Below, piece by piece: positions 13,102-60,464 of a stretch of 64,000 bases of DNA (within the stretch, counting starts at the first letter, position 1; each line of letters starts with the position of its first letter). The stretch is from contig OX387203.1 of NCBI GenBank assembly GCA_947561715.1, positions 868,001 through 932,000 on the forward strand, given 5' to 3'. The notes beneath the pieces are model-generated. The model was not told the origin of the DNA and made no database searches. It saw only the letters and a program-made list of their open reading frames with translations. A program made the translations under genes and the position numbers. Origin of the DNA: Ascidia mentula (taxonomy: Eukaryota > Chordata > Ascidiacea > Phlebobranchia > Ascidiidae).

Positions 13102-14234
13102 TTACTGACGATGCAAACCCTCAACTTTCGGCTGAAAAAAATCGCAAAACTTTCAATTTCATCAAAATTAACAAAACCATGTTTTAAAGCAAATTTAAAT
13201 TAAACAAATTCTTACCGGGTTTTTCAGTTTTTTAATCTCTTCTCTCAAGACTTGAATAGATTCGGAATCGAATCCGCATCGAAACAGCACCAACTCCTCA
13301 TCCACTTTAGGGAGAATCCGACAAATATTTCCAACATCTTTTCGTTCAAACTTGTTGGAAGTCAGGACGAGTTTTCTCAACTATTTAAAATATAAAAGTT
13401 GGTCGGAAATCTTTGTTTCAAACTTTTTTCAAACAGATTTTTTTTCTTAAAACCGGATTAAAATTAACTCCATGTTTTCACTTTTGATTAAAAAAAGTAA
13501 GTTTTATAAAAATATCATGGATTTAAACAAATATTTATTCTCAAAATAATGAAAACCAACCTTGGGTCCCATCTTCAAAATCGCTTCAAAGATCATGTTG
13601 AAAGTTTCGGAATTAAGTTCGCATCCCAGCAACCCCAGCAACAAACCGGGTTCTCGAATCCGTGGGAGGAAATCCGCGAGAGCGAAAACATCCGAAATCT
13701 TCAGTGGGGTTTGGTTGAAATCCAACACCCGAGGACAAGAGAGGGCGATTTCATCTCTAAATATTTCGTCAACTTCCTGTAAATCTACGAGGAAATCTGA
13801 AACAGGGACAAGTTTATTAAAACAAACATGGCGGAAGTTTTCTTAAATCACTAAAACTTTTTATTGGAAACTTCAAACAAGATTTCTTCACTTTTAACCG
13901 GATTTAAACAAGAAAAGATCCAACAAATTAATCAAATACAAAAACATTAACTTACTGGAAGGAAAACATAAACTTTATCCGACAAAAAATATGCGACCTT
14001 TCTTTAAAACTTTCAACCTGAATTAAACATTTTTATTCCATTCTCTTCTATAAGAACAATGGAATTGCGACGTCACAATACTTACTGTGACGTAACAGTT
14101 ACGTTTACAAACACGCATCACACAGACTGGAAATAAATACTAACCTCGTAACTCGTGTTTACGTAAATATAATCCATTAAGCCTTTTTTCTTGCAGGTAT
14201 TTCGAAAGTTTCTTCAACTTTTTCTTACGTTTGT
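13102..14234 (-). CDS. NLR gene A exons 8-11: LRR region and C-terminus
   Basis: Exon 14234-14145 encodes a basic cap (KRKKKLKKLSKYLQEKRL) and runs phase 1 to 1. Exon 13796-13561 begins FLVDLQEVDEIFRDEIALS and contains DFLPRIREPGLLLGL followed by a Cys-Glu-Leu-Asn turn. Exon 13380-13216 (55 codons, phase 0-0) begins LRKLVLTSNKFERKDVGNI and ends KLKNP, a typical ribonuclease-inhibitor-type repeat pair. The last exon 13131-13102 adds nine residues (PKVEGLHRQ) and a TAA stop. About three repeats are present, fewer than in most NLRs. Confidence 0.8.
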
Positions 14235-17200
14235 CTGAAAATAACAAGATCAACATTTACGGCAAAAATAGAAGCCATGTATTTGGATGGGAGAATTATT
14301 TAAACTCCCAATGTGCGTTTTCCACAAATATAACCTGCGTATGTTAGATGCGTAATGAGATGTGAGACTTTCTAAAGGCCGCATCTCTCAATTAAATCCC
14401 AAAAATTGAGTTTTAGAAGTCATTTGTTATTGTGCACCTGGTTACAGTTTCTCTTGTTTGCCAAAAACAATTGCCGGGTCTGATGACTCATGAAGGGGGA
14501 CTACTATTGCTGAACAGAAAAAAAATTGATTGCAGCTGCATTAAGACAGCACATTGGGGGGGTTTGCAAAGGCTAACTGCTAAATTGTCAGTCCTAGGGG
14601 GTGTACAAACAGCCCCGGTGGGGCCCCAAGACAATTACAAGACATCTAATTCTTCATGAATTGTGTAGAGGAGGGTTGGTGGCTTCACTTAATCGCAAAT
14701 GGAGGTAACTTTCTGTGATTCATTTTTTCACAAAACAAACCTACACTTTTTTCTGCTTTTTTGACCAAAATAATGGCCAACAGAGGGTCAAAATGCCCCC
14801 GGGGGAGCAGTTTAACTAGTTATTTCGATTATAAATTTGGCCACAATTCCTTGCCAAGGGTCCGCACTGACAGAAAATCACAAATTGAACATACTTTCTG
14901 TGATTCATTTTTTCACAAAATCAACCTCAATATTTGGGTAGTTTTTCAGCTACATGTACAACAGCACCCTCTACCAATTTACTGCCTGACTAATAACCCT
15001 GAAAAACAAACTAAAACTGCCCCAAACACGCTGAAAATCGCCCTGGCAACAGCCTGTTCATCTGCGCTCATTCAACCAAAACACTGGCGCTCATGCATGA
15101 CCCATTGCATTGTTACACATAATTTTACTCTGTTACGCAGGACAGAGTTCGAGAAGGGCAATTCCCAACCGGGAAAGTCTTTTCCATAGAAATACAGAGA
15201 TGCGGCCTAAACCACGATGCCCGTTTACCCAATATAATGTTAACTTGCAGTGGAAACTGTGTGAAAGTTTAACAGCAAGCTTTTCGCGCAAAGCAACGTT
15301 GTGTAACAAATTGTAAACATGTTTTTGCAAATCGTTTAGGGCCTGTCAATGCAGACAAGTGCAACAAAACAAATATGTTAAATAACAGCAGCATCTTAAC
15401 TTTGCCAATAGTTTCTTTGTCCCAGCTTTTTACACCTAAATGCCTTGCATTACTTTGCTGGTTACAATTATTACAGCAGAATAATTTTCATATTTTTAGA
15501 TGAGAAAAAAGAAAAGATTGTTTTTAATGTAACTGACTACCATGCATTTGTTCCTCATTGTTAAGTGTGGAGGATGCTGGATCACTGGAGTCAGTCTTGA
15601 CTGAGGTTGATGGCAAGATTTTTAGACTAGAACCACTTCCATCACCTGTAAAAAACAATCAAGGTGATAACTGCAATTTAATGGCACTTATGTACACTGT
15701 AAGGGTTAACCCAATACGAAGGCCTTACTTGATAATTTTGACAATAAATAAATTAGTTTACAGTGGCCTAACAACCAAGCTGGACCTGGGCATTCTAGGC
15801 CACTGCTCTGTCTGTGGGAGTTCGCCAGTTGGACTTTAGAGCAGGGATGCACAACTCAAATGTCAAATTTGGCTTGCCAGTGGTTTTTGCCTGTTTTACT
15901 GGGAAAAGGGGATTTAATTCAGCTATGCTGTATTCATAGGCTAATCACTGCTTTAAACCACACCAGGAGTCCATTTCAAGAGCAAATAAAAAAGAGACAT
16001 TTTTGGAGCCATTGAGATCTATAAATATTCATACTGACTGCTTCAGGTACAGCAACAGCAAAATGTTTAAAAAAAGCCAAAATAATTGAGAGCTGCAGAC
16101 AGGGTGTACATGCACCAGCTACACTGGTGAGACATCATAGGTCGAAACAGTGCATGTACACCCTGTCTGCAGCTCTGAAATGTTTACACATGTGAAATGT
16201 TGTAATATTCATACCATTTGACAATTAATTTAAGTGCCCAAAACCACAGGTTTATGCAAAACAATGGATATAATAAATACCAAAGAATTTTTGTGTTACA
16301 AAAATGGTAAACTTCAGTACTTGCACTAAAAATCAATTAAGCAGCGTGTGTGCATAGGGCAGAACTTACTTTTGACATGTCCTAGCTCAACACCATCTAT
16401 TTGAGGTATTCTGGATGCCTCAAGTTCAGCTGCAGCAGTGGAAGTTTCACCAGCTGTAGAAACATGTGCATTACAAAGCAGAAACAAAATACACTGGGAT
16501 ACCATCTGCTTACAGGTACCTTGATGAAACAGCGTACAAACATTTGTTGAAATTACGGTAATATTTTAAATAATTGTCCAGTGGTTTCAACCTGTAAGGG
16601 CTGTTTAAGTGGTGTGCAAAAAATGCAAGATAGACAAATTCGATCCAAAAATGCAAATCAAAACTATGTTTTGTCGTATTGATATTGCATGCTGGGACAT
16701 GTGTCATGAACTTTCAATGGGCATTAAATCCTGTTTCTGGTTGTTATTTTGCATTTTTATATTCAGTTCATAGCACAACAAAACCATACTTTAACACATA
16801 ATACACTGTCAAATCTTGTGCACCACAGTTTAAAAAAGGGAGCATTGTTGTTTTAACAGGTTATGTTTTACTCAAACAGTTTTCTGCTTCGAAAACATTT
16901 CCCACCATATTCCGGCGACTGTTTTGAAAGTTGGGCCTTGGAATTTGTTGCGCCACCCAATGTTTTGGATGAAGTAGATTTTACATTTGTTGAAGCCAAA
17001 CCTCCTCTGCAAGCTGTAAAACATCAAGTCACAATATATAGTATAGCATATATCTTTCTTTTTCTATCAGTTATATTTAAGTTCAATGCTAAGTTTTGTC
17101 AGCAAAAAATATAACAGAAACATTTTTAATACACAAAGACCAAATAAATATAGTACTGACGGATTTTATGCATCTTGGAAATTGTCGTACCGCTGACAGC

Positions 17201-20200
17201 ACTATTGACAGGATCAGATTCTGAACTGGTTTCACTACATCCACTTCCAGAGGCTTGGATAGAAAATTGTAAAATAAAAATAATGGTCATTAAAGCACAA
17301 ACTTTCCAATGCACTGCACATACCTGGTTTGTGTCCGAGCAAAAAACCACACACAAAACGACGAACCATTGCCCAATGGGGTTTGTAAATCAAATCGTCA
17401 ACGATTTGATCAAATTCTTCATCTGACATGAACATAGAAATGTAGTATGCACCAAACATTTCCTGCAGAACTTGATGAAGGTAGTAGAAGAGAACATCTC
17501 TCCCATCAAAGACTCTACGACTGGGAAACCAGGAGAACTTTGCCATTTTGAACACTACATCCTGTACTTTCACATCTTCTAAACCTACTTTTTGAAGGTC
17601 AATATGTGTGAACACAACGGTTTTACGAACCATGCCTTCATATGCCATTTGGCCAAGTGGCAATTTGAGGTTTTCTAATTTCTCTCCTTTTGCATGCTCA
17701 GATTGACCAAGATGTTGCAAAACAACATCAAATACATTAGTTATGGTGGAAATACTCTGTACTTCACCAAATAACCCAGCATAAACAATAAATTGTAAAA
17801 GCATTGGATTGCGGCATAAATCAAGCAATTGTGGAGATTTAGTTGCAAGTTTGCTCCACAATTGTTTTGCTTTATCACCCGAGTAACCATCAAACAGTGT
17901 CTTTGCATCCTCAGGAGAAAGATCACTGACATAAATTGTTGGCTTAGGTCGGAGTCCTAATGGTATTAATAGCAATGAGTGGGGTCGAGAAGTAAAAATC
18001 AATGTAGATTTTGGAAAAAAATGCCTGCTGCAAAGGTTAGCAACAAGCTGTTGTACTGGCAAGGGAGTGCCATACTTCTCATTTACAGGTGCCATGTTTT
18101 CTAGTGTCCAGGTTGCCTGATCTAATCCATCAAATATAAAAGCACACTTTTCTGGGTTGTCTTTCATCCACTGGAAAACCATATTGAGTGTTTCCTGTGA
18201 AGCATGGTTGAACTGGTTATCCAGCAGAAGCTCCTGCAAAGTAAGCTTTCTATCACCGTAGTTTAAATACATGAACCGAAGATGAAGCACTAAGTGATCT
18301 TCTGTTTCTAATTGCCTGCATAATCTCTTTGAAAGAGTGGTTTTGCCGCATCCAGCCGGTCCAAGAAAAGCTAGAAATAAGCCTTGCTTTTTGTGTTCTT
18401 TGAAGCTTGAAACTAGTTGAGGAAATTTGATGTGTTCACCAACAAATCGATCATTGTCCCCCTTGCTTGTTGATGGCTGAAACTCATTTTCCTTTTCAGG
18501 ATCAATTCCTTTGTAAATATCAGTATCTATCAGTGTTGGTTGAACCTCTGCTATTTTAACCTTTTGCAACTCTTCACTGTAAGGGACAACATCGGGATCA
18601 AGATTTTCAAGCTGATACTTTTTGATTTCATCAACTGCCTGTTGCAACTTTTCTTCTGCAAATTTTAAACAGGTTTTTCAGATAATAAATCCACGTTACT
18701 GTGGTTTTTAGACAAAACAGTGGGCTCTAGCATCTATGTTTGGCTGGTTTATTTTTAGTGTAGCATGCTGCATAACCACAACCCAAATTGAGGATTAGCG
18801 TTTATCAGTAAAATTATATTGTAATGGTAACGTCAAATGCCACAGAAAAATGATAAAATCCCCAAGTACAAAAACGGGAAAAATTGTCTGCTGTTTAGTT
18901 TTTTAGCCAACCGTATAATGTATCATCATATTTTCATTTCAAATGCTAATTTACAAAGTTTTAGTTGATCTAACTCTTATTTTACGTCAATTTATGGAAC
19001 TACTTTGCTTCGTAGTAGTAGGAACAAACATAATTTCAGATGACATCAGTAAACATCACAGAGTATATTTAGTTGTAACAGGCAAATTTCGAGTTGTAAC
19101 TCTCTGATTGGTTGGATTTTTACCCACAATGCAGTATACTTAATGGAGATTAAAAAAATCTGCTAAAGGACGCATATTGGTATTTCTACTAAAATAAGTT
19201 TGGCGGCGGAAAATTTGCACCTCGTATTTAATCCTCTGTCACCAAAGAAGGACGCCACAAAGCAATGAGTGATGTATGGGAGTCAATTTTACGGTTGAGT
19301 GAGCACATATGTATGTGCGGTTACTAGGACGAATTTAAGCCAGTTTTGGGCAGTTTTAAGTAGAGTTTTGGGCGTTTTAAGTCATGTAGTTACGTGGTAA
19401 CGGGTGCTATATAAAATTTAGCTAAAAAGGCGGTTCAAACTCCAGGCTATATCTGCGGGACGCATATTGATATTTCTATGAAAATAAGTTTTGGTGCTGG
19501 GAAATGCCCACCGTGTAGACCTGTTTCAAAATAGAAATTCATGCATTACCAAGCAAAGTAGTGATGCATTTAAGTTAAATTTAAGGTTGAATGAGCGCAC
19601 TTGTGCGTGCTGTTGTCATGGCGAATTTTAGGGTGTTTGGGGCAGTTTTAGTGGGGTTTTGAGCTATTTCAATTAGATAGTTACTTGCTGGTTTGTGCTG
19701 CTGAAAATTATGTTGAAAATGGAGCAAAAAAATCAGGCTGTATTTGTGGAAAAATGAATCGTTTAAGTGTCTAATCATTCGTGATTTTACGAAAGATCTA
19801 TCTCATATCTACAAATTTTGATCAAAATTAGTCTCCGAAAAAATGGTTTAGCACCCCCCTGCCCCCCTGGTTACTCAGTATTTTGGTTAAAAGAGCAACA
19901 AAAAATGGAACTGGATTTTGCAGAAAAATAGATCGTTCAACTACCCACTCATTTGCATTTTTTTGTAACTTCCAACTCTTTCTCTATGCAATGGCATCAA
20001 ATTTAGTAGTTGAAAAAGTGTAAAAGCCCTCCCCCCCAGGGCTGTTTATATCCCCTTGTTGGTCATATGATCTTCCAGGAGGCCCAACAAGTCCTTGCTC
20101 TGTACAGTCTCATCCAGAAGCAAAATTTTTTTTTCAACTTTGAAGAATTTTAGGTCCCTATGTAAGTCACAAGACCCATCAACGGACATTGGGAAACAAG

Positions 20201-22798
20201 CGGAACAGTCGCTAGATGCATTAAAGCCGAGGGCCTTGAACACAGGATTTCTCCAATTTAATACCCATACAGGTCTTGCAGAATAATTAAAAATTTATGT
20301 CTGCGTTGAATTACAAAAAAATTCTGGTCCAAGAACAGACCACCGGTGACGGGACCTGCAGCCAACATGGTGTCTGACGGAAGTCAATGTTCATAACGAC
20401 AGTGATGTTTCAATCCTGCTATAACTGACAAATCGCATCCTAAAAGCATGAGCAATCAGTCATGTTGTGTAGCAGCCTACTGTTAATGCCACAGTTCTAA
20501 CCCGCTTTTTTGCCAAGTTAAATAATGTGAGTGATATTTTTTATTATTGTTGAAACTTTCTATTAGTTATGTTCGCAGTTCTAAACTATCCGGCCTGGCG
20601 AAACCTAGTGTGAAGAAAGTGGGCAGAAAAAGTGGACGCGAACACATGAGCGGGAAGTAAATCCATCGAAATCATAATCACTCAGCAAAACATGGGAAAC
20701 AAGCCAGGTTTTGTTAACAAAGTTGTATATTTTGTGTGTTTTCAGAGGACGAACTTTCAGCGATTGTATGAGAGTGTTTCCGTTCCACAGTCAGCAAAAA
20801 AAGCTTCATCGTAGATAAACGTATGGTGTTTCAGCTACAGTGTTTGTTTTACATGTTGGCCAAACAAGCGTGAAGAAAATTCCTCACTTTCTAAGCCCAT
20901 GTGATCGGCGTGAAGATGCCTTGGACTTACTGGCACCGTAGCTTCATTTGACAGTTTGGCTTAACACAAGATGCGGTAAACTGGAATCTTCTGTCCACCG
21001 TAATCCATATTGGAAATAGCTGTCCCTGTACTGTCGTATCTACCAACTGATTTAAACGTTTTCACAAACACTTTTACTTCCCGTATGTTTGCACAGTTTC
21101 GCTTGTCACTGCTACCGAAATATTCCAACACTTGTCCTCAAGTGGTTTGTAAAATGGTTACGTAGGTTATTTGTGATGTCACAAGGTTATAATTTGTGAT
21201 ATTTTATCAATTTTTCACCGCACACACAGTTTGCGAAATCTGTTAAATGCAGTATTCTGACAAGCTGTAAAGTGCACTATTCGTTCAAGTAGACAAAATG
21301 ATCCCAACTCATGATTCTACAAGGGAAGTGAGATCTCCCGAGCATCTGGATCCCAACACAAATTACTAAACACATAAAAGTATCTGAAAACTTTTTTACA
21401 CCTTTCACGCAAAAAAGGTCACGGACAGAATGCTTTCAACTTAAATGCTGAAGTCAGACAAATTCTTATTTCAATCAGAATATTGATTTCCTTAGAAGCA
21501 GAGGTCGGTGCTATGACAACCAAGACACGCACGCCCACAGCCACCAACAATTACCGTAACTGGAATTTAAGGGCACCAGAGGCGGTTGATGGTTGCGCCT
21601 GACGAAACAATTTCCGTGCTTTTGGAAGCGGCTATCCCAACGAAAACAAGCTTCGGGTCATTGCGACTGACGGAAAAGTTAAATCAGATTTAACTCCGCC
21701 GTCAGACGTTTCGAGCGAGAAAATCAAGGCCATCACGGCTATGGCCGTGTTTAGTGTGAATCCTGCTTTAGGCAGTCACTATCTCCGTGGTATATGTTAA
21801 TTGCTCCTGCTCAGTAACTTAATACATGAAGGCCAACGATGAACATTTACAAGAACTTGCGTTCCATGAGATAGCACCAGATTTCCATAGCAATGCATCA
21901 TGCATGGCAACCTAACTGATCATTGGTAGCAAAATTGCTGACAACCATAAACAAAAATGTAGAATTCGGTAAAAACATCATCTGCAGTGACAATTTTAAT
22001 GTGATGATGTCCACGTCATTTAATCAGTGTCTAACGGTCTAAGTCACGTAATATGTTGAATTGGATTCTATGTTGTCGTTGGGGCAAGACACAGATATTA
22101 GTAAATGAGTCGCATTAAGCTAATAATTTTGTCATCTCCAAATGGTCGAACACAAATGCTAAATCAGTTGGGGTTCGACTTGAATACAAGCATTTGTATT
22201 CCAAACTTCCCTAGTAAAACTCTCATACCTCGTTTATCTTCTGCTTCTGTTATGGTTGATTCATGATAATGGGCGTGATGGTGATGTTCTTCCACTGTCT
22301 GATGATGATGTTCTTCCACAGTCTGATGCAGATGTTGTTCCACAGTCTGATGCAGATGTTGTTCCACAGTCTGAAGCAGATGTTCTTCCACAGTCTGATG
22401 CAGATGTTCTTCCACAGTCTGATGCAGATGTTCTTCCACAGTCTGATGCAGATGTTCGTCACCAGTATGTAGGTGTAGGTTCTGGAATAAAACCAGAATA
22501 GTTAAACAACAACAAGGCGGTTTTCTTTTTGGAGTATCTTCACTAAACTAGTGATCGCCAATTTTGGTTGTTCGAAGGAAAGTAATAATTAACTGCATTT
22601 GTAAACGTCACAAAGAGACCACTATGCGTCATAATAATAATTATATTGAAGTGTGATATCTTTGATGTAATACAGCAGATCACTATAAAGTGAATAATCA
22701 ACAAAAACCTTTACTATCAAGAATAAAATCTTTACATTCAAGCTTACCTCGGCAACAATGTTTTGTGGGTTTTCTCCTTCTGTTTGTTGTTCGGCCAT
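13102..22798 (-). CDS. NLR-type gene A: NACHT ATPase with short RI-type LRR tail, 11 exons
   Basis: Exons read from splice sites on the minus strand are 22798-22748, 22481-22229, 18655-17324, 17253-17161, 17013-16906, 16453-16370, 15645-15541, 14234-14145, 13796-13561, 13380-13216 and 13131-13102. Phases agree throughout and the joined length is 2547 nt, giving 848 residues and a TAA stop. NACHT features are Walker A GPAGCGKTT (about residues 200-208), Walker B FIFDGLD (274-280) and a sensor-like LIFTSRP (320-326). Ser/Thr-rich linkers follow, then leucine-rich repeats of ribonuclease-inhibitor type. By family this is a cytosolic pattern-recognition ATPase of the STAND class. No CARD, PYD, DED or Death domain is visible; the N-terminus is His-rich instead. 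The LRR region is short for an NLR. Exon borders are inferred without transcripts, and the 3.6-kb intron after exon 2 could hide a further phase-1 exon. Confidence 0.85.
14700..15200 (-). repeat. Dispersed repeat family member inside NLR gene A intron
   Basis: Inverted copies of the family seen at 19440-19740 lie here, including the word for GAATGAGCGCA and the tail TTTCTATGGAAAAG. They occupy the intron between linker exon 7 and LRR exon 8; gene B lacks this insertion, having only about 550 bp between the flanking exons. Confidence 0.5.
15541..17253 (-). CDS. NLR gene A exons 4-7: Ser/Thr-rich linker cassette
   Basis: Four short exons lie between NACHT and LRR: 17253-17161 (begins SGSGCSETSSESD), 17013-16906 (CRGGLASTNVKSTSSKT), 16453-16370 (GETSTAAAELEASRIPQ) and 15645-15541 (GDGSGSSLKILPSTS). 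All begin and end in phase 1, so any can be skipped or duplicated without changing frame. Composition suggests a flexible, possibly phosphorylated tether. The donor of the second exon is weaker than in gene B: the site used there has changed, leaving a GTGGGA alternative three bases earlier that keeps the frame. I recognise no domain in these exons. Confidence 0.7.
16089..16176. repeat. 27-bp perfect inverted repeat in an NLR gene A intron
   Basis: Left arm 16089-16115 and right arm 16150-16176 are exact reverse complements (AGAGCTGCAGACAGGG outward). The 34-nt loop contains CTGGTGA, a GAC/GTC helix and CGAAAC, resembling a decayed hammerhead ribozyme core on the plus strand. Gene B has only one arm at the same place. 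Confidence 0.8.
17324..18655 (-). CDS. NLR gene A exon 3: NACHT domain
   Basis: A single 1332-nt exon (acceptor TTTGCAG, donor CCAG|GTATGT, phase 1 at both ends) encodes a whole NACHT module. Walker A is GPAGCGKTT; the hydrophobic Walker B strand ends FIFDGLD, with the second acidic residue one position later than in many ATPases, which fits NACHT proteins. LIFTSRP matches the sensor strand, and CRNPMLLQFIVY the helical region after the nucleotide-binding fold. FYYLHQVLQEMFGAYY corresponds to the conserved F-H-x(2)-hydrophobic-Q-E-F/M motif near the end of NLR NACHT regions. A leader of about 95 residues precedes the P-loop and is acidic and Pro/Ser-containing. The binding and hydrolysis residues look intact, so the ATPase is probably functional. 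Confidence 0.92.
18656..22228 (-). other. Intron 2 of NLR gene A, with dispersed repeats
   Basis: This 3.6-kb interval has no exon I can defend. Copies of a dispersed repeat family lie at about 19180-19440 and 19440-19740. The part from about 20290 to 22150 aligns with 57940-59530 in gene B, which lacks the 19440-20280 portion, so that portion is a gene-A-specific insertion or a gene-B deletion. A 65-codon open stretch on the minus strand at 20046-20243 has no convincing splice sites and no counterpart in gene B. Confidence 0.6.
19180..19790 (+). repeat. Two dispersed repeat family members in tandem
   Basis: Two successive copies share CGCATATTG(G/A)TATTTCTA, GTTGAATGAGCGCA-like and GGCAGTTTTAAGTAGAG-like words. 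They lie in intron 2 of NLR gene A; the first is shared with gene B (57600-57910), the second is not. Confidence 0.5.
22229..22481 (-). CDS. NLR gene A exon 2: histidine-rich 8-residue tandem repeat
   Basis: The acceptor TTCCAG lies before 22481 and the donor GAG|GTATGA follows 22229; the exon runs from phase 0 to phase 1, so it can splice directly to the NACHT exon. It starts NLHLHTGDEHLHQT and continues with about eight copies of the unit VEEHLHQT, with L, Q or H substitutions, then a His cluster (HHHHAHYHE) and an acidic end (TEAEDKR). At DNA level it is a 24-bp minisatellite. The His pattern could bind metal or mediate multimerisation; both are guesses. The plus strand is also open through the repeat, but only the minus frame has flanking splice sites. 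Confidence 0.75.
22748..22798 (-). CDS. NLR gene A exon 1 (start exon)
   Basis: This 17-codon exon begins with ATG in a good initiation context (purine at -3, G at +4) and reads MAEQQTEGEN then PQNIVAE before a GAG|GTAAGC donor in phase 0. Gene B carries the same exon with one substitution (P to S). No signal peptide is seen, in keeping with a cytosolic protein. Upstream on the minus strand lies a TATA-rich stretch at about 22835-22865, also shared with gene B, which could serve as promoter. Confidence 0.75.
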
Positions 22799-23430: not shown

Positions 23431-25490
23431 CACCGATAAAACCATGGTGTTAAAGAAGCAAACACTTGTGGAAAATTATATTCCGACACGGAGAATCACG
23501 TTTTGCGTATATAATCACAGCAACATAACCAGTGTGGTTACAATGGGGTTTGTATGTGGATGTGGTCGAAACAAAATGGCGGCCGCGTATCGCTTGTTGA
23601 TAATTACATATTGTTGATAATGTCACGTAACAATTTTCAGAAATGGAATATAACATTTGAAGTTGTCCTTAATTCGAACCTGTCTTTGTCGTGACTTGTA
23701 CTGAACACGTGACGTCAGCGCTGTAGTTAAAATTTTCCAGTAGGACGAAGTTACGATTAAACAACCATGTTTTCAAACGTACGGGATGTACGAAGTTACC
23801 AAACACCGTTCCCTGTTCAAACCTCGTTTACAAATCTCTTAAATCTCGACGAGCATTGTTCGTTAAACGGGAAGAGGATTTGAACTCTCGTAAAGCTGTA
23901 ACAGAAAGATTACTTACATGTTTTCTATCATCTGCACCCGCGGTAACATGGACTTTTTTAAAAACGGGAAAGAATTAAATATCTTAAACCGTAAATGCAA
24001 TCTGTAGACTTCAAAAAAAACTCATTTAGCGATCTGGTAGGATAATGTGACAATTTTGAATTTTGTTCACAATATACGGCGAGATTTAAACACGTTTTAT
24101 GCAACTTATGGATCCAAACAAGCTACAATAGGAAAAGATTGGGAACCACTAATTTAGGCGATCTTAATCAACAGGAGCGCGACGAGGGTGGCGTCATCCA
24201 GTGTACAAAGAAATTCAACAAAGCGTGATCTCGCTCTCACTCTGTTTTACGATCACAGCCAGTTTTACGTCAGTCGGTAAGTTGAATTTACTGCCTAACG
24301 AATCGTAAACTGACCCAACTTAAAGCTCATAGGAAGCTGACGACCGCAAACTTTACCAACGCCCATGCACTCTATAATTTGGTGTGTTGGCGACAGATGA
24401 GTGAGTTTTTATTTCTCGCAGATGTTTCCCGAAAAATATGCCGGAAAACATCGATGAAGCGTGAAATAATTTTCAATAAATTTAATTTTGTAGCGCTAGC
24501 CGCAATACGCACCCACACATCGAGCGTACAACAAAATGTGTTTTCGTATTCCACACTTTTTAACAGAGTCATTGCTCTGTTGTACTAAAATCGTCAGTAA
24601 GGTGATTAGTATTTTCTGTCACAAAGTTGAGAATACTCAAACACTCGTGTATATATAAACACATATACTCCTGTATACATAAACACACATACTCCTGTAT
24701 ATATAAACACATATACTCCTGTATATATAAACACATATACTCCTGTATATATAAACACATATACTCCTGTATATATAAACAGATATACTCCTGTATATAT
24801 AAACACATATACTCCTGTATATATAAACACATATACTCCTGTATATATAAACACATATACTCCTGTATATATAAACACATATACTCCTGTATATATAAAC
24901 ACATATACTCCTGTATATATAAACACATATACTCATGTATATATAAACACATATACTCCTGTATATATAAACACATATACTCATGTATGTAAAAAGCAAA
25001 GGGAACAAATAAAAACAAGTAAGAGACCAAGAAACCGTGTATGCTTTGAAGTAATCTAAACTATTCAGTGCCAGACAAAGTAAGCAACACTATGGTTAAT
25101 TTGTTCAAGCCAGTATTAAACCTTGCAGACAAGAAACAACTTCTGTTTTCGCCGTTTTGGCATCTTGCGTTGAAATGATGGAACTGACTGCTTGTAACTT
25201 GCTATAGTTTTACAAGTTATTCTACAAGCAAAACCAGGATTTAATATAACCTAGTTGTAACAAATATGAGAATACAACTTGTATCAGTTCTCAAAGCAGG
25301 GACCGCATGTGAGAATAGCCCAACATCACCAAATCACCCCACCACCCCCATATCACACCGGTTCACGCACAAACTACTCTCACCAACACCTAAAACTGTC
25401 CAGACACAAAACGAGCCAGGTAGCGGAAGTATTTCATTAGAATCTTTCCCACCGACCAAGGGTATATATTTAATTTAAAATAGCTTGACA
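23430..25490. repeat. Duplicated intergenic block, first copy
   Basis: It aligns with 25700-28385: the AACCAGTGTGGTTACAATGG start, the GCGCTGTAGTT region, a conserved stretch ending at an AT-rich minisatellite, and the following ACTGACTGCTTGTAACTTGC tail. No coding signal is supported. Its tail part also matches 42122-42440 and 60840-60990. Confidence 0.7.
24645..24990. repeat. AT-rich 24-bp minisatellite, about 14 copies
   Basis: The unit is TATATAAACACATATACTCC plus TGTA. It has no stop in several frames on both strands, which produces long repetitive open frames that are not genes. Confidence 0.9.
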
Positions 25491-27694: not shown

Positions 27695-27834
27695 ATACGC
27701 ACCCACAAATCGGGAGTATGGCAAAATGTGTTTTCGTATTCCACACATTTTAACCGAGTTATTGCTCTGGTGTATTAAAATCGTCAGTAAGGTGATTAGT
27801 ATTTTCTGTCACAAAGTTGAAAATACTCAAACAC

Positions 27835-28085
27835 TCATGTATATATAAACACATACACTCCTGTATATATAAACACATATACTCCTGTATATATAAACAC
27901 ATATACTCCTGTATATATAAACACATATACTTCTGTATATAAAAACACATATACTCCTGTATATATAAACACATATACTCCTGTATATATAAACACATGT
28001 ACTTCTGTACATAAAAACACATATACTCCTGTATATATAAACACATATACTCCTGTATATATAAACACATATACTCATGTATATA
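27835..28085. repeat. AT-rich 24-bp minisatellite, about 10 copies
   Basis: It has the same unit as 24645-24990 with several variant copies (for example TACTTCTGTA). It is the sister of that array in the duplicated block, with fewer copies. Confidence 0.88.
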
Positions 28086-28385
28086 AAAAGCAAAGGGAAC
28101 AAATAAAAGCAAATAAGAGACCAAGCAACCGTGTATGCTTTGAAGTAATGTAAACTATTCAGTGCCAGACAAAGTAAGCAACACTATGGTTAATTTGTTC
28201 AAGCCAGTATTAAACCTTGCAGACAAGAAACAACTTTTGTTTGCGCCGTTTGGCATCTTGCGTTGAAATAGCGGAACTGACTGCTTGTAACTTGCTATAG
28301 TTTTACAAGTTATTCTACAAGCAAAACCAGGATTTAATATAACCTAGTTGTAACAAATATGAGAATTCAACTTGCGTCAGTTCTC

Positions 28386-51205: not shown

Positions 51206-52345
51206 TTACTGATCATCCAAACCCTTAACTCGCGGCTGAAAAAAAATCACAAAACTTTTAATTTCATCAAAATTAACAAAACCATGTTTTAATGCAAATA
51301 TAAATTAAACAAATTCTTACCGGGTTTTTCAGTTTTTTATTCTCTTCTTCCAAGACTCGAATAGATTCGGAATCGAATCCGCATCCACGCAGCCACAACT
51401 CCTCATCCACTTTAGGGAGAATCCGACAAATATTTCCAACATATTTTTGTTCAAACTTGTTCAAACTCAGGTCGAGAATTCTCAACTATTTAAAATATAA
51501 AGATTGGTCGGAAATCTTTGTTTCAAACTTTTTTAAAACAGATTTTTTTTCTTAAAACCGGATTAAAATTAACTCCATGTTTTCACTTTTGATTAAAAAA
51601 AGTAAGTTTTATAAAAATATCATGGATTTAAACAAATATTTATTCTCAAAATAATGAAAACCAACCTTGGGTTCCATCTTCATAATCGCTTCACAGATCA
51701 TGTTGAAAGTTTCGGAATTAAGTCCGCATTTCCTCAACCCCAGCACCAAACCGGGTTTTCGAATCCGTGGGAGGAAATCCGCGAGAGCGAAAACATCCGA
51801 AATCTTCAGTGGGATTTCGTATAAATTTAAATTCAACTTCCGAGGACAAGAGAGGGCGATTTCATCTCTGTATTTTTCGTCAACTTCCTGTAAATCTACG
51901 AGGAAATCTGAAACAGGGACAAGTTTATTAAAACAAACATGGCGGAAGTTTTATTAAATCATTAAAACTTTTTATTGCAAACTTCAAACAAGATTTCTTC
52001 ACTTTTAATCGGATTTAAACAAGACAAGATCCAACAAATTAATCAAATACAAAAACATTAACTTACTGGAAGGAAAACATAAACTTTATCCGACAAAAAA
52101 TATGCGACCTTCCTTTAAAACTTTCAACCTGAATTAAACATTTTTATTCCATTCTCTTCTATAACAACAATGGAATTGCGACGTCACAATACTTACTGTG
52201 ACGTAACAGTTACGTTTACAAACACGCATCACACAGACTGGAAATAAATACTAACCTCGTAACTCGTATCCATTTAAATACAATCCCCGAAGCCTTATTT
52301 CTCGCAGGTATTTCGAAAGTTTCTTCAACAACTTCGCACGTTTGT
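51206..52345 (-). CDS. NLR gene B LRR region and C-terminus
   Basis: Exon 52345-52256 encodes a basic cap (KRAKLLKKLSKYLREIRL). Exon 51907-51666 reads FLVDLQEVDEKYRDEIALS then an LRR pair with DFLPRIRKPGLVLGLRKCG. Exon 51485-51321 begins LRILDLSLNKFEQKYVGNI and ends KLKNP. The final exon 51235-51206 adds PRVKGLDDQ and a stop. It is two codons longer than gene A in the second of these exons. AATAAA signals lie on the minus strand at 51106-51101 and 51086-51081. Confidence 0.8.
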
Positions 52346-55300: not shown

Positions 55301-58300
55301 AAGCATTGTTGTTGGTTATGTTTCACTCCAACAGTTTTCTGCTTCGAAAACATTTACCACCATTTTCCGGCAACTGTTTTGACAGTTGGGCCTTGGAATT
55401 TGTTGCGCCATCTAATGTTTTGGATGAAGTAGATTTAACATTTGTTGAAGCCAAACCTTCTCTGCAAGCTGTAAAACAATGAGTCACAATATATAGTATA
55501 GCGTATATCTTTCTTTCTCTTTCAATTACATTTAAGTTCATTGCTAAGTAATCAGCAAAGTTTTGTCAGCAAAAAAGATAACAGAAACACATTTTTAATA
55601 CACAAATACCAAATAAATATAGTACTGACGGATTTTATGCATCTTGGGAATTGTTGTACCGCTGACAGCACTATTGACAGGATCAGATTCTGAACTGGTT
55701 TCACTACTTCCACTTCCAGAGGCTTAGATTGAAAATTATAAAATAAAAATAATGGTCATTAAAGCACAAACTTTCCAATGCACTGCACATACCTGGTTTG
55801 TGTCCGAGCAAAAGGCCACACACAAAACGACGAACCATTGCCCAATGGGGTTTGTAAATCAAATCGTCTACGATTTGATCAAATTCTTCATCTGACATGA
55901 ACATAGAAATGTAGTACGCACCAAACATTTCCTGCAGAACTTGATGAAGGTAGTAGAAGAGAACATTCCCCCCATCAAAAACTCTACGACTGGGAAGCCA
56001 GGAGAACTTTGCCATTTTGAACACTACATCCTGTACTTTTACATCTTCTAAACCTACTTTTTGAAGGTCATCATGTGTGAACACAACGGTTTTACGAACC
56101 ATGCCTTCATATGCCATTTTGCTAAGTGGCAACTTGAGGTTTTCTAATTTCTCTCCTTTTGCATGCTGAGAGTGGCCAAGTTGTTGCAAAACGGCATCAA
56201 ATACATTAGTTATGGTGGAAATACTGTGCACCTCACCAAATAACCCAGCATAAACAATAAATTGTAAAAGCATTGGATTGCGACATAAATCAAGCAATTG
56301 TGGAGATTTAGTTGCAAGTTTGTTCCACAGTTCATTTGCTTTATCACCCGAGTAACTATCAAACAGTGTCTTTGCATCCTCAGGAGAAAGATCACTGACA
56401 TAAATTGTTGGCTTAGGTCGGAGTTCTAATGGTATTAATAGCAATGAGTGGGGTCGAGAAGTAAAAATCAATGTAGATTTTGGAAAAAATTGCCTGCTGC
56501 AAAGGTTAGCAACAAGCTGTTGTACTGGCAAGGGAGTGCCATACTTCACATTTACAGGTGCCATGTTTTCTAGTGTCCAGGTTGCCTGATCTAATCCATC
56601 AAAAATAAAAGCACACTTTTCTGGGTTGTTTATCATCCACTGGAAAACCAAACTGAGTGTTTCCTGTGAAGCATGGTTGAACTGGTTATCCAGCAGAAGC
56701 TCCTGCAAAGTAAGCTTTTCATCGCCGTAGTTTAAATACATGAACCGAAGATGAAGCACTAAGTGATCTTCTGTTCCTAGTTGCCTGCATAATCTCTTTG
56801 AAAGAGTAGATTTGCCGCATCCAGCCGGTCCAAGAAAAGCTAGAAATATGCCTTGCTGGTTGTGTTCTTTGAAGCTTGAAACTAGTTGCTGAAATTTGAT
56901 GTGTTCACCAACAAATCGATCATTGCCCCCCTTGCTTGTTGATGGCTGAAACTTATTTTTCTTTTGAGGATGAAATCCTTTGTAAATATCAGTATCTATT
57001 AGTGTTGGTTGAACCTCTGGTATTTCAACCTTTTGCAACTCTTCACTGTAAGGGACAACATCAGGATCAAGATTTTCAAGCTGATATTTTTTTATTTCAT
57101 CAACTGCCTGTTGCAACTTTTCTTCTGCAAATTTTAAACAGGTTTTTCAGATAATAAATCTATGTTACTGTGGTTTCTTGAGAAACAGTGAGCTCTAGCA
57201 TCTATGTTTGGCTGGTTTAATTTTAGTGCAGCATGTTGCATAACCACAACGCAAATTGAGGATTAGTGTTTATCTTTCAAATTATATTGTAACAGAAAAA
57301 TGATAAAATCCCCAAGTACAAAAACGGGAAAAAAATTGTCTGCTGTTTAGTTTTTTAGCCAACCGTATAATGTATCATTATATTTTCATTTCAACTGCTT
57401 ATTTACAAAGTTTTAGTTGTTCTAACTCTTATTTTACGTCAATTTATGTAACTACTTTGCTTCGTAGTAGTAGGAACAAACATAATTTCAGATGACATCG
57501 ACAAACATCACAGAGTGTATTTAGTTGTAACAGGCAAATTTCGAGTTGTGACTCCCTGATTGGTTGGATTTTTACCCACAATGCAGTATACTTAATGGAG
57601 CTTAAAAAAACTGCTGAAGAACGCATATTGGTTTTTCTATGAAAATATGTTTGGCGGCGGAAAATTTGCACCTTGTATGTAATCCTCTGTCACAAAAGAA
57701 GGACGTCACAAAGCAATCAGTGATGCATGGGGTTCAATTTTACGTTTGAGCACATGTGCCGTAGCTTGGACTAAGTTAGTAGTCTCTGCTTGGATGAATT
57801 TGAGCCAGTTTTAGGCAGTTTTAAGTAGAGTTTTGGGTGTTTTAAGTCAGGTTGTTACGTGGTAACGGTTGCTGTATAAAATTGAGCTGATAAGGCGGTT
57901 CAATCTTGAGGCTATATCTGCAGAATAATCAAAGACTTATGAATTACAAAAAATTTCTGGTCCAAGAACACCATCGGTGACGGGACCTGCAGCCAACATG
58001 ATGTCTGACGGAAGTCAATGTTCATAACGACAGTGATGTTTCAATCCTGCTATAACTGACAAATCGCATCCAAAAAGCATGAACAATCAGTCATGTTGTG
58101 TAGCAGCCTACTGTTAATGCCACAGTTCTAACCCGCTTTATAGCCAAGTTAAATAATGTGAGTGATATTTTTCATTATTGTTGAAACTTTCTATTAGTTA
58201 TGTTCCTCAATCGAAATCATAATCACTCAGCAAAACATGGGAAACAAGTCAGGTTTTTTTACAAAGTTGTATATTTTCTGTTTTTTCAGAGAAAAAAGTT

Positions 58301-60464
58301 TTAGCGATTGTACGAGAGTGTTTCCGTTCCACAGTCATCAAAAAAAGCTTCATCGTAGATAAACGTAGGTGTTTTAGCTACAGTGTTTGTTTTGCATGTT
58401 GGCCAAACAAGCGTGAGGAAAATTCCTTACTTTCTAAGCCCATGTGATCGGCGTGAAGATGCCTTGGTTACTTATTGACACCGTTTCGACAGTTTGTGTA
58501 ATAGAATGGTTTCATATCTTCGTCGAAACTCTTTCATTAATTTTTCGCGGCACGCACAGTTTGCGAAACCTGTTAAATGCAGTATTCTGACAAGCTGTAA
58601 AGTGCTCTGTTCGTTCAAGTAAACAAAAATGATCGCATGCTCATCATGATTCTACAAGGAAAGTGAGAGCTCCCGAGCATCTGGATCCAAACCCAAATTA
58701 CTAAACACATAAAAGTGTCTGAAAACTTTTTTACACCTTTCACGCGAAAAAGGTCACGGACAGCATGCTTTCAACTTAAATGCTGAAGTCAGACACATTC
58801 TTATTTCAATCGGAATATTGCTTTCCTTAAAAGCAGAGGTCGGTGTTGTGACAACCAAGACATGCACGCCCACAGCCCCCAACAACTACCGTAACTGGAA
58901 CTTAGACAGTCTCTATCTAAGTAGTATATTTGTTAATTGCTCTTGCTCAGTCGCTCTCTCTTAAGGACTCGTTTACCCAGTTTTAAATTCCATTGATATG
59001 ACGCGTGTGTTATAATTCGTAGACGCATTCTGTTCACGGAGTAAAATTATATCGTTAAGAACACGCCCCAGAAGATCAGGACTTAGTTAAAACAGCCAAA
59101 TTCACACCGCTGCGTCTGACCCATGCTCCGCAATGGAGTTTTAGGTGCTTGACAATTTCTGAAATTACATAAACTCATTACATAAAAGCCAAACATGTAC
59201 AAGAACTAGCATTCCCAGACATAGCACCAGATTTCCATGGCAATGCATCATGCATGGCAACCTAACTGATCATTGGTAGCAAAATTGCTGACAACCATAA
59301 ACAAAAATGTAGAATTTAGTGAAACATTATCTGCTGTGACAATTTAATGTGATGATGTCCACGTCATTTAATCAGAGTCTAACTGTCTAAGTCACATAAT
59401 ATGTTGAATTAGATTCTATGTTGTCGTTGGGGCTAGACACAGATATTGTTAAATGAGTCGCAATTAAGCTAACAATTTTGTCATCTCCAAATGGTAGAAT
59501 ATAAATGCTAAATCAGTTTGGTTTCCACTTGAATACAAGCATTTGTATCCCAACCTATTGAGCGAAGCGTTTATGTAAACAGGCTTAGCGAGTATTGAGC
59601 GGGAAATGCTGATGTGAAACGTTTATCAGTTGATTGTTTTGTACCTTGTTGCCCCCCTTGGGGTTTTATGGCAGCATCTGTGTTGGCTGGTGGTGCTGTT
59701 GGCGGCTGTTGTTGCTGTATCACAGTATTGTAATGTACAATTGGCTGGTGCACATATACATCACCAATTTGGAGGTTCTGGAATGAAATGGTGCATCTTT
59801 GCCATGGAGCTAGCGGCAAATAACAAGTTGTTTGCTAGTTTTGGGACAGAGGACTTCTCAATTTGTGCAGCCGCAAATAGATTTGACTTGATATAACTTA
59901 CAATTCAACATTTGCAAACATTTTTCCAAACCTGAGCAAAACCAACGAAAGTTCTCTATTTACGAAGTACATTATCTTTCAGTTTCTGCGTACTACACTC
60001 GGCGCGTTCATTAGAGACGAACGTGGCAAACACCTATGGAGCGCAACCTTTTAGAGTTAAGTCAAATTCTCCATGACTATTAGTCTCTTCTGCAGGGCAT
60101 AAATAGAAACGGCAACAAGCTTACCTCGGCAACAATGTTTTGATGCAGATGTTCATCCACAGTCTGATGGTGATGTACGTCACCAGCATGTAGGTGCAGG
60201 TTCTGCAATGGAACTAACAAAAGTAACCAAACACACTAATATTAATCGTCCAAAAAGACAGCATGGTCGTTGAAATTTTCTGAAATCCAATACTGCTCTA
60301 AGCTGCCCACATGCGTTTTGTTACGTGCAAAAAAAACTGTCGCTCACAAATGACTTTCTCCAACCTCTGCCACCAATACAGCAAATCTCAATATTCAAGA
60401 ACAACAAGCTTACCTCGGCAACAATGTTTTGTGAATTTTCTCCTTCTGTTTGTTGTTCGGCCAT
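51206..60464 (-). CDS. NLR-type gene B: NACHT ATPase with short RI-type LRR tail, 13 exons
   Basis: Exons on the minus strand are 60464-60414, 60202-60125, 59777-59645, 57124-55793, 55722-55630, 55468-55358, 54926-54843, 53330-53226, 52984-52895, 52345-52256, 51907-51666, 51485-51321 and 51235-51206. All phases agree; 2604 nt encode 867 residues and a TAA stop. Walker A is GPAGCGKST (about residues 186-194) and Walker B FIFDGLD (260-266). The gene is a paralogue of gene A, lying downstream of it in the duplicated block order. It differs in having two N-terminal exons in place of the His-rich repeat exon, one extra linker exon (52984-52895) and possibly another (near 54551-54441). Role by family: cytosolic nucleotide-dependent immune or stress sensor. 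Borders are inferred without transcript data. Confidence 0.83.
52895..55722 (-). CDS. NLR gene B linker exons between NACHT and LRR
   Basis: Exons 55722-55630, 55468-55358, 54926-54843 and 53330-53226 are counterparts of gene A exons 4-7. Exon 52984-52895 (ATNSTTEKPRGLMK, ending QPKPAGQ) has no counterpart in A, where the surrounding sequence of about 440 bp is missing near 15330. All are phase 1-1. A further copy of the 55468-55358 exon lies at about 54551-54441 (FRDGLASTNIESTSSKT), but the base needed for the usual donor GT is changed to A, so it may be skipped or use a GT three bases earlier. Confidence 0.68.
53826..53854 (-). ncRNA. Degenerate hammerhead-ribozyme-like motif
   Basis: The minus strand reads CTGATAA, then GACC-TCAT-AGGTC hairpin, then GAAACAG. 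This matches the hammerhead core CTGANGA / helix / GAAA except for one core base (A for G). A palindromic helper arm (CAGACAGGGTGTACATGTA) is next to it. Activity is unlikely given the substitution. Confidence 0.4.
55793..57124 (-). CDS. NLR gene B exon 4: NACHT domain
   Basis: The exon has the same length (1332 nt), phase and splice sites as in gene A. Walker A GPAGCGKST, Walker B FIFDGLD, LIFTSRP and the FYYLHQVLQEMFGAYY motif are all present. Roughly 45 residue differences from gene A are spread along the exon, many of them charge changes, while the motifs are unchanged. No stop or frame break is seen, so both paralogues appear to be maintained. Confidence 0.92.
57125..59644 (-). other. 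Intron of NLR gene B before the NACHT exon
   Basis: This 2.5-kb intron aligns with the gene A intron over most of its length: 57125-57900 with 18656-19440, and 57940-59530 with 20310-22150. A dispersed repeat copy lies at about 57600-57910. I see no open exon with flanking splice sites inside it. Confidence 0.55.
59645..59777 (-). CDS. NLR gene B exon 2b: Gln/Pro-rich exon
   Basis: The acceptor ATTCCAG precedes NLQIGDVYVHQ, which is related to the start of gene A exon 2. The rest is Gln/Pro/Ala-rich (IQQQQPPTAPPANTD) and ends GGQQ before a donor CAAG|GTACAA. It runs from phase 0 to phase 1, as required to join the NACHT exon 2.5 kb downstream. No domain is recognised. Confidence 0.6.
60125..60202 (-). 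CDS. NLR gene B exon 2a: short His-rich exon with an exon-1-like end
   Basis: The exon starts after an acceptor TTGCAG and begins NLHLHAGDVHHHQT, like the start of gene A exon 2, then has VDEHLHQ. It ends with NIVAE and the donor GAG|GTAAGC, which is the end of exon 1. The exon is therefore a join of the front of exon 2 with the back of exon 1. The result is 26 codons in phase 0-0, so it can be inserted between exon 1 and exon 2b without a frame change. Confidence 0.65.
60414..60464 (-). CDS. NLR gene B exon 1 (start exon)
   Basis: This 17-codon exon reads MAEQQTEGEN then SQNIVAE and ends at a GAG|GTAAGC donor in phase 0, as in gene A. The bases on both sides of the exon, including the TATA-rich upstream stretch at about 60505-60530, are shared with gene A. 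Confidence 0.75.

What the first reader, a model, noticed from the sequence alone, without database searches (positions are those of the whole stretch)
22229..22481. Coding minisatellite gives an NLR a histidine-rich tandem-repeat N-terminus
The second exon of NLR gene A consists mainly of about eight 24-bp units encoding VEEHLHQT-type repeats, with good splice sites and phases that link exon 1 to the NACHT exon. Known NLRs use CARD, PYD, BIR, DED or Death domains here. A His-rich repeat of variable length could bind metal, respond to pH or drive multimerisation; those roles are inference. Unit number is likely to vary between individuals.
Basis: partly seen in the sequence, partly recalled or inferred. 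Interest (0 to 1): 0.8.

Follow-up and report, generated by a model that had tools for sequence, protein, structure and literature searches.

The report
Histidine-rich repeat exon in tunicate NLRs
In a sea-squirt genome, a large family of immune-receptor genes starts its proteins with a histidine-rich stretch built from a short repeat whose copy number differs from gene to gene; what this front end does is still to be tested.

Summary
The exon is real and almost certainly coding: 22229-22481(-), 253 nt, with a 24-bp array of 7.6 copies. Both junctions have consensus splice sites, and exons 1-2-3 join without a stop. At least 46 copies lie on the same 19.9-Mb contig. In all 45 that I read, acceptor AG, donor GT and frame are kept, while unit number runs from 1 to 12. 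Of 55 NACHT exons at 72% identity or more, 41 have one upstream. Substitutions in the units favour codon position 3 in this frame only. The host is a tunicate: its mitochondria read AGR as glycine. The genes are NLR-like: NACHT, winged helix, LRR-like exons. No death fold was found in exon 2. Gene B and more distant paralogues carry a Gln/Pro- or Gln-rich exon in the same slot, so the His repeat looks like one lineage's expansion of a fast-evolving N-terminal segment. Function is inferred: a titratable arm clustered by NACHT assembly, or only a tolerated linker. Zebrafish NLRs are a precedent for N-terminal repeats, with another unit.

The parts
22748..22798 (-). Gene A exon 1: MAEQQTEGENPQNIVAE, donor GTAAGC
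   Evidence: the same exon 1 or its donor found upstream of the repeat exon in 21 of the 26 distinct loci scanned for it
22229..22481 (-). Gene A exon 2: His-rich repeat exon, 253 nt, phase 0 to 1; 22 His of 84 aa
22276..22457 (-). 24-bp minisatellite, 7.6 copies, unit HLHQTVEE
17324..18655 (-). Gene A exon 3: NACHT (PF05729 E 2.9e-18) and start of winged helix (PF17779)
17157..17253 (-). Candidate exon 4 (ASGSGCSETSSESDPVNSAVSGTTISKMHKIR), boundaries read by eye
   Evidence: 42% identical stretch at the same place in a 57% paralogue, L089, E 5e-4
13558..13791 (-). LRR-like C-terminal exon 1 of gene A (assignment by position and paralogues)
13210..13371 (-). LRR-like C-terminal exon 2 of gene A
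60413..60463 (-). Gene B exon 1: MAEQQTEGENSQNIVAE
60125..60202 (-). Gene B chimeric exon: start of the repeat exon fused to the end of exon 1 (NLHLHAGDVHHHQTVDEHLHQNIVAE), phase 0 to 0
59645..59777 (-). Gene B Q/P-type exon 2 (NLQIGDVYVHQPIVHYNTVIQQQQPP...), phase 0 to 1
55793..57124 (-). Gene B NACHT exon, 92% identical protein to gene A; ends placed by analogy with gene A
51663..51902 (-). LRR-like C-terminal exon 1 of gene B
51315..51485 (-). LRR-like C-terminal exon 2 of gene B

Best explanation
Shown by sequence: 22229-22481 is a coding exon of a duplicated tunicate NLR-type gene. It gives the receptor a histidine-rich octapeptide-repeat N-terminal arm in the place where other NLRs carry a death-fold domain. 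Between paralogues its length changes by 24-bp units and smaller in-frame steps, and chimeric copies point to recombination, while frame, splice phases and the two ends (NLH..GDV.. and HHHHAHYHE...KR) are kept. Inferred: the arm is extended or helical. When NACHT domains oligomerise, many arms are brought side by side. The cluster of closely spaced His and Glu then acts as an assembly or partner-docking surface whose charge depends on protonation, and possibly on Zn or Cu, with unit number setting reach and avidity.
For: Paralogues: 45 of 45 read exons keep AG, GT and frame, with 1-12 units; 41 of 55 C71 NACHT exons at 72% identity or more have one upstream on the same strand, 37 of them within 8 kb; 2 of the 41 are the chimeric type. 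Selection: of 112 single changes in 128 units chosen by nucleotide match, 72 are at codon position 3, with 0 stops; the two other frames show 23 and 11 stops. Position conservation: His 1 and His 3 kept in 114 and 108 of 116 units (that unit filter favours conserved residues), and HxH before QT in 116 of 132. A HH..H[YF] motif is present in 43 of 43 ordinary exons, and His makes up 30% of residues at the median of 45. 46 of the 55 NACHT exons have no stop inside; dN/dS of gene A against 14 paralogues is 0.25-0.79, median about 0.45. NLR class. AlphaFold2 gives one helix, residues 2-83, mean pLDDT 85.5. Computed charge of the exon-2 peptide of gene A goes from -14.7 at pH 7.4 to +3.3 at pH 5.5. 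tblastx of intron 2 against four distant loci (L080-L083) gave 0 hits at E below 0.1, so no sign of another conserved exon.
Against: The exon's two ends show no significant constraint (omega about 0.59 and 0.97, p 0.23 and 0.53). The distinct-variant test on units is weak (p 0.039), and the copy-level p-values are inflated by homogenisation. Three genes, window gene B among them, and more distant paralogues use a Gln/Pro- or Gln-rich exon in the same slot, so histidine is not required for the family as a whole; 14 of the 55 NACHT exons have no His exon found and 5 of the 46 His exons have no NACHT exon assigned. AlphaFold2 readily draws long helices for Glu-rich repeats (recalled, not tested), and the pTM is only 0.44. 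There are no RNA or biochemical data.
Confidence: 0.45

Rival explanations
1. Coding but nearly neutral: exon 2 encodes a flexible polar linker whose only duty is to stay open and in frame; the minisatellite grows and shrinks by slippage and gene conversion and is tolerated.
For: Alternative Q/P-rich exon in the same slot in 3 genes plus distant paralogues; ends of the exon unconstrained by distinct-variant counts; wide length range, 26-131 aa, chimeric exons included; 3 of 12 pairs with flanks at least 97% identical differ in unit number.
Against: HxH is present in 43 of 43 ordinary exons, including those with a single unit, and His is 30% of residues at the median; third-position bias in units.
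Confidence: 0.35
2. Metal switch: Zn(II) or Cu(II) bound by His (and Glu) of the repeats cross-links arms of neighbouring NLR protomers or gates the receptor, by analogy with the metal-binding histidine octarepeats of the prion protein.
For: 8-residue period with mostly two His per unit, and HxH throughout; Zn binding and self-assembly of a different His octarepeat are reported in the abstract of PMC12522110.
Against: No metal-site geometry was tested; no sequence relative among solved structures at E up to 1; no expression or binding data.
Confidence: 0.12
3. Diversifying surface: variable repeats act as bait or decoy for pathogen factors, so variation itself is selected.
For: Clustered, expanded family with copy-number differences between close paralogues.
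Against: Units are homogeneous in protein sequence, HLHQTVEE and HHHQTVEE making 79 of 116 (filtered); single changes in units are synonymous more often than expected.
Confidence: 0.05
4. Not an exon: a non-coding satellite that happens to be open.
For: Other 24-bp satellites in this genome lie in long open frames, e.g. window 24643-24995 and C70:2.92-2.94 Mb.
Against: Splice sites, phase and exon ends kept in 45 of 45 copies and frame-specific substitution pattern; similar exon 1 and exon 2 before NACHT exons of 57% and 75% identity (the exon-2 matches themselves are weak, E 0.076 and 0.011).
Confidence: 0.03

Closest known systems
Zebrafish NLR-B30.2 family (groups 2-4), PMC4852459 (abstract, passages and section 2.2 seen)
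   Same: Large clustered NLR family; N-terminal extension of tandem peptide repeats; NACHT with winged helix in one large exon; signs of shuffling of N-terminal exons between members
   Different: Unit about 30 aa, N-terminal peptides on single exons (paper), against 8 aa with the units inside one exon here; no FISNA domain among the families listed for the NACHT exon; B30.2 not sought here
Ascidian NLRs as surveyed in PMC11508797 (passages seen)
   Same: NACHT with or without LRR and no CARD
   Different: The paper reports no N-terminal domain; here a histidine-rich exon lies in that position
Prion protein octarepeat; PMC12522110 abstract and outline, PMC2674676 listing
   Same: Coding repeat with an 8-residue, His-bearing unit near the N-terminus
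   Different: Another protein and another unit; unstructured there (abstract), Glu-rich and predicted helical here
Sea urchin SpTransformer (Sp185/333), PMC5491942 (passages seen)
   Same: Clustered immune family, repeats in the second exon, His-rich region of variable size; a His-rich fragment becomes more helical with LPS
   Different: Leader-bearing proteins of another build (Gly-rich, RGD and His-rich regions); here the His-rich exon precedes a NACHT exon

Membership tests
Animal NLR (NACHT-LRR) | NACHT NTPase with Walker A and B | tested here: met
   PF05729 E 2.9e-18; GPAGCGKTT and FIFDGLDQ in gene A, largely kept in 20 aligned paralogues; 27 of 30 PDB sequences matched by the profile are NLRs, the 3 others weak P-loop hits (with 5irl/5irm named as rabbit NOD2)
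Animal NLR (NACHT-LRR) | Winged helix after the NBD | tested here: met
   PF17779 NOD2_WH E 2.6e-6 over 34 residues; Foldseek best hits NOD2 and NLRP3, NLRC4 further down; the model is weak, mean pLDDT 62.9, below 50 in much of this region
Animal NLR (NACHT-LRR) | C-terminal LRRs in the same gene | tested here: inconclusive
   LRR-like exons on the same strand downstream of A and B and of two paralogues; their profile hits NLRP14 at E 9e-4; Pfam found no LRR model in the C52 and C69 versions (those of A and B were not scanned); no transcript to prove linkage
Animal NLR (NACHT-LRR) | N-terminal death-fold effector domain (usual, not universal) | tested here: not met
   Exon 2 matches no Pfam family over its cut-off; no conserved extra exon in intron 2 against four distant loci; intron ORFs were not scanned with Pfam
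Zebrafish NLR-B30.2 family | FISNA domain before NACHT | tested here: not met
   Not among the 25 best families listed for either NACHT exon (each list was full at 25)
Zebrafish NLR-B30.2 family | About 30-aa N-terminal peptide repeats | tested here: not met
   8-aa unit, the units in one exon
Zebrafish NLR-B30.2 family | C-terminal B30.2 domain | not tested
   No scan of the 3' exons of A or B for this domain
Prion-type octarepeat | Sequence similarity to His octarepeats of solved structures | tested here: not met
   phmmer of exon 2 against PDB sequences, no hit at E up to 1
Metal-binding His repeat | Binds Zn or Cu | not testable with these tools
   -
SpTransformer family | Leader, Gly-rich, RGD and His-rich regions | tested here: not met
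   Exon 2 splices to a NACHT exon in the inferred model; signal peptide not tested

The most novel reading that the evidence does not exclude
One tunicate NLR lineage replaced the usual death-fold front end by a repeat-number-tunable histidine arm. NACHT-driven clustering makes this arm a pH- or metal-gated assembly device, and slippage of a 24-bp unit sets each paralogue's (and perhaps each individual's) threshold.
Probability: 0.2. Interest if true: 0.85.

Novelty: new variant of a known kind. Interest (0 to 1): 0.6.

Why it matters
Ascidian NLRs have been reported without an N-terminal effector domain (PMC11508797, passages), so how they signal is open. Here dozens of paralogues fill that place with a histidine-rich repeat of differing length. 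That gives a natural length series from 1 to 12 units for testing whether a simple titratable repeat can replace a death fold, and a case of fast N-terminal change in an immune family by minisatellite turnover and paralogue recombination.

Tried and rejected
Exact search of the genome with a guessed 24-mer found nothing. Coiled coil: the unit is 8 residues, so hydrophobic positions recur every 4 and do not keep a heptad; no coiled-coil program was run. Weak Pfam hits to exon 2 (10 families, best Gp5_trimer_C, E 0.0023, all below their cut-offs) were rejected as compositional. Other hits: the one C70 stretch and the first C67 locus that I read are another 24-bp satellite coding QQTVETCF-like units; the C52, C2 and second C67 hits are 26-31% identical and were not read; three C71 plus-strand hits of 12-16% identity lie on the other satellites of the window. 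A hidden CARD, Death or PYD exon in intron 2: 0 tblastx hits against L080-L083, but the C69 locus L084 shares about 0.8 kb of intron 2 (19450-20284), full of stops and best matched in the opposite direction, which I take for a dispersed element; the intron's ORFs were not scanned with Pfam. Rows dropped before counting: L013, L014 and L028 (second hits of exons already counted), L029 (C67 satellite), and unfetched second hits of the same exons. NACHT rows left out of the 55: those on other contigs, the 57% and more distant C71 ones, and one second piece. Counts are lower bounds, as those tools say.
Full report
WHAT IS THERE. On the minus strand, 22229-22481 holds a 253-nt exon whose core is a 24-bp array of 7.6 copies (22276-22457). 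It reads NLHLHTGDEHLHQTVEEHLHQTVEE...HHHHAHYHESTITEAEDKR, 22 His of 84 residues. Exon 1 (22748-22798, MAEQQTEGENPQNIVAE), exon 2 and the NACHT exon (18655-17324) have donors GTAAGC, GTATGA and GTATGT and acceptors TTCCAG and TTGCAG. Joined, they give 545 codons without a stop.

IS IT CODING? An open frame is not enough: a different 24-bp satellite in this window (24643-24995) lies in an open frame of 163 aa. The paralogues decide. A protein search of the window's own genome found the exon at 46 places on C71, counted after merging double hits (lower bound). I read 45 of them; the 46th is gene B's copy in the window. In 45 of 45 the acceptor is AG and the donor GT, the gene-strand frame is open, and 43 of 43 ordinary exons have length 1 mod 3; the two chimeric ones have 102 and 78 nt. 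The exons were located as stop-free segments bearing the two ends, so openness is partly a search condition, but no locus failed. The five other frames are open in 21, 0, 16, 0 and 2 of 45. Units chosen by nucleotide match alone (128, of which 54 distinct) all lie in one phase. Of 112 single changes 72 are at codon position 3, with no stop; read in the other two frames of the same strand the units give 23 and 11 stops. The distinct-variant test, which counts each variant once, gives p 0.039.

WHERE IT SITS. Of 55 C71 NACHT exons at 72% protein identity or more, 41 have such an exon upstream on the same strand, 37 within 8 kb, median distance of the 41 about 3.5 kb; two of the 41 are the chimeric type, 14 NACHT exons have none found, and 5 of the 46 repeat exons have no NACHT exon assigned. 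46 of the 55 NACHT exons have no stop inside; 9 have one or two, and 3 more are partial matches. The NACHT exon matches PF05729 and NOD2_WH. Of 30 PDB sequences matched by its profile, 27 are NLRs (NLRP1, NLRP3, NLRP9, NOD2 and others) and 3 are weak P-loop hits. Its model's best structural matches are NOD2 and NLRP3, with NLRC4 further down, although mean pLDDT is only 62.9. Downstream of A (13791-13558, 13371-13210) and of B (51902-51663, 51485-51315) lie two LRR-like exons, also found behind NACHT exons on C52 and C69. Their profile hits NLRP14 at E 9e-4, although Pfam finds no LRR model in the C52 and C69 versions. The genome gave 95 NACHT matches in each of two searches, with only 94 of 302 and 95 of 317 candidates scored. 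dN/dS of the NACHT exon of A against 14 paralogues is 0.25-0.79, median about 0.45.

THE HOST. COX1 lies on a 19.5-kb contig. Read with AGR as Gly it scores 333.4 bits against PF00115, with AGR as Ser 317.7 bits; 15 AGR codons are involved in the 321 codons read. AGR as Gly is the ascidian mitochondrial code (NCBI table 13), so the genome is a tunicate's. The species was not identified.

HOW THE EXON EVOLVES. Unit number, counted by motif, runs from 1 to 12 (14 of 45 exons have one, 13 have two). L011 and L021 have flanks 99.2% identical and differ by exactly 24 bp; L024 and L027 have flanks 97.5% identical and differ by 45 bp and two units. Of 12 pairs with flanks at least 97% identical, 3 differ in unit number; the three are two comparisons of L021 with the near-twins L010 and L011, and L024 with L027. 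Three loci (window B, L086, L087) have exon 1, then a chimeric exon that begins like the repeat exon and ends like exon 1 (QNIVA[EK]), then a Gln/Pro-rich exon in the exon-2 slot; the Q/P exon of L087 has one stop, and its chimeric exon has no NACHT exon assigned. The simplest reading is recombination between a His-type and a Q/P-type gene. A 57% relative (C71, 19.7 Mb, L088) has exon 1 MAERQTEQADPQNIHTE and exon 2 NLYLGDQHYDVHQQIVQHQTVVQHNYPQPAASPANTAPLTSVQQ (match to the Q/P exon weak, E 0.076). A 75% relative (C1, L081) has exon 1 MDEQQTEEENNPQNIVAE and exon 2 NLHISDVQNQIWQQQTIYQQPVIQHHYHQ... (E 4.6e-5 and 0.011). So the slot is probably old, and one HQTVVQH-like motif may be the seed of the His repeat (inference). 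In about 5 kb read upstream of single C52, C72 and C69 NACHT exons I saw no His-rich exon of this type; C52 showed a weak exon-1-like match (E 0.22).

HOW IT MAY WORK. Steps shown: coding, splice-compatible, placed before NACHT, length-variable, His-rich (7-42 His per exon, median 30% of residues); HxH precedes QT in 116 of 132 units. Predicted: one helix over residues 2-83, mean pLDDT 85.5, pTM 0.44, from 14 aligned copies; such models may overstate helices in Glu-rich repeats (recalled). Computed: net charge of the exon-2 peptide of gene A from -14.7 at pH 7.4 to +3.3 at pH 5.5, with model pKa values. Inferred: clustering of arms on NACHT oligomerisation, with a protonation- or metal-dependent surface. 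Against it: the exon ends are not significantly constrained (omega about 0.59 and 0.97), and Q/P-type exons can fill the slot. I therefore keep a tolerated-linker rival close behind.

WHAT IS KNOWN. Zebrafish NLR-B30.2 groups 2-4 have N-terminal repeats of a ~30-aa peptide, shuffled between groups (PMC4852459: passages; section 2.2 read). A metazoan survey states that ascidian NLRs lack CARD and contain only NACHT-LRR or NACHT (PMC11508797: passages). SpTransformer proteins have a variable His-rich region, and a His-rich fragment gains helix with LPS (PMC5491942: passages). Zn binding and self-assembly of the prion octarepeats is from the abstract of PMC12522110. Six literature searches listed no paper whose title or abstract start names a histidine-rich repeat at an NLR N-terminus. 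The listings were capped (20 of 22, 20 of 2,939, 10 of 582) and the library is open-licence PMC only, so this is weak evidence of absence.

VERDICT. Observation confirmed; interpretation partly supported; new variant of a known kind (an NLR with lineage-specific N-terminal repeats). My confidence that it is a coding exon of this family is about 0.95; confidence in the clustered titratable-arm mechanism is far lower.

Noticed in passing
window 5648-4140 (-): A calponin-homology gene (PF00307 E 4.6e-9) whose reading runs into LRR-like exons like those of the NLR family (4719-4603, 4425-4255): a possible CH-domain plus NLR-tail fusion gene.
   Followed up: partly
window 60125-60202 (-), L086, L087: Chimeric exon made of the start of the repeat exon and the end of exon 1, each followed by a Gln/Pro-rich exon 2; looks like recombination between two gene types.
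   Followed up: partly
window 24643-24995 and 27833-28089: Two arrays of another 24-bp minisatellite (ACTCCTGTATATATAAACACATAT), the first in an open frame of 163 aa though probably non-coding.
   Followed up: no
G000 C70:2.924-2.940 Mb and C67:9.731 Mb (L096, L029): A third 24-bp satellite, in open frames of up to 1671 aa, coding QQTVETCF-like units; it shares QTVE with the NLR repeat, probably by chance.
   Followed up: partly
G000 C71 14.2-15.2 Mb: Pairs of repeat exons with flanks 99-100% identical (L005/L006, L010/L011, L075/L077) suggest recent segmental duplication or unmerged haplotypes.
   Followed up: no
G000 C69 16.9-21.3 Mb and C70 0.3-4.6 Mb: Further clusters of NACHT exons (C69 ones 52-57% identical to gene A; C70 ones); of their upstream stretches I read one C69 locus only.
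   Followed up: no
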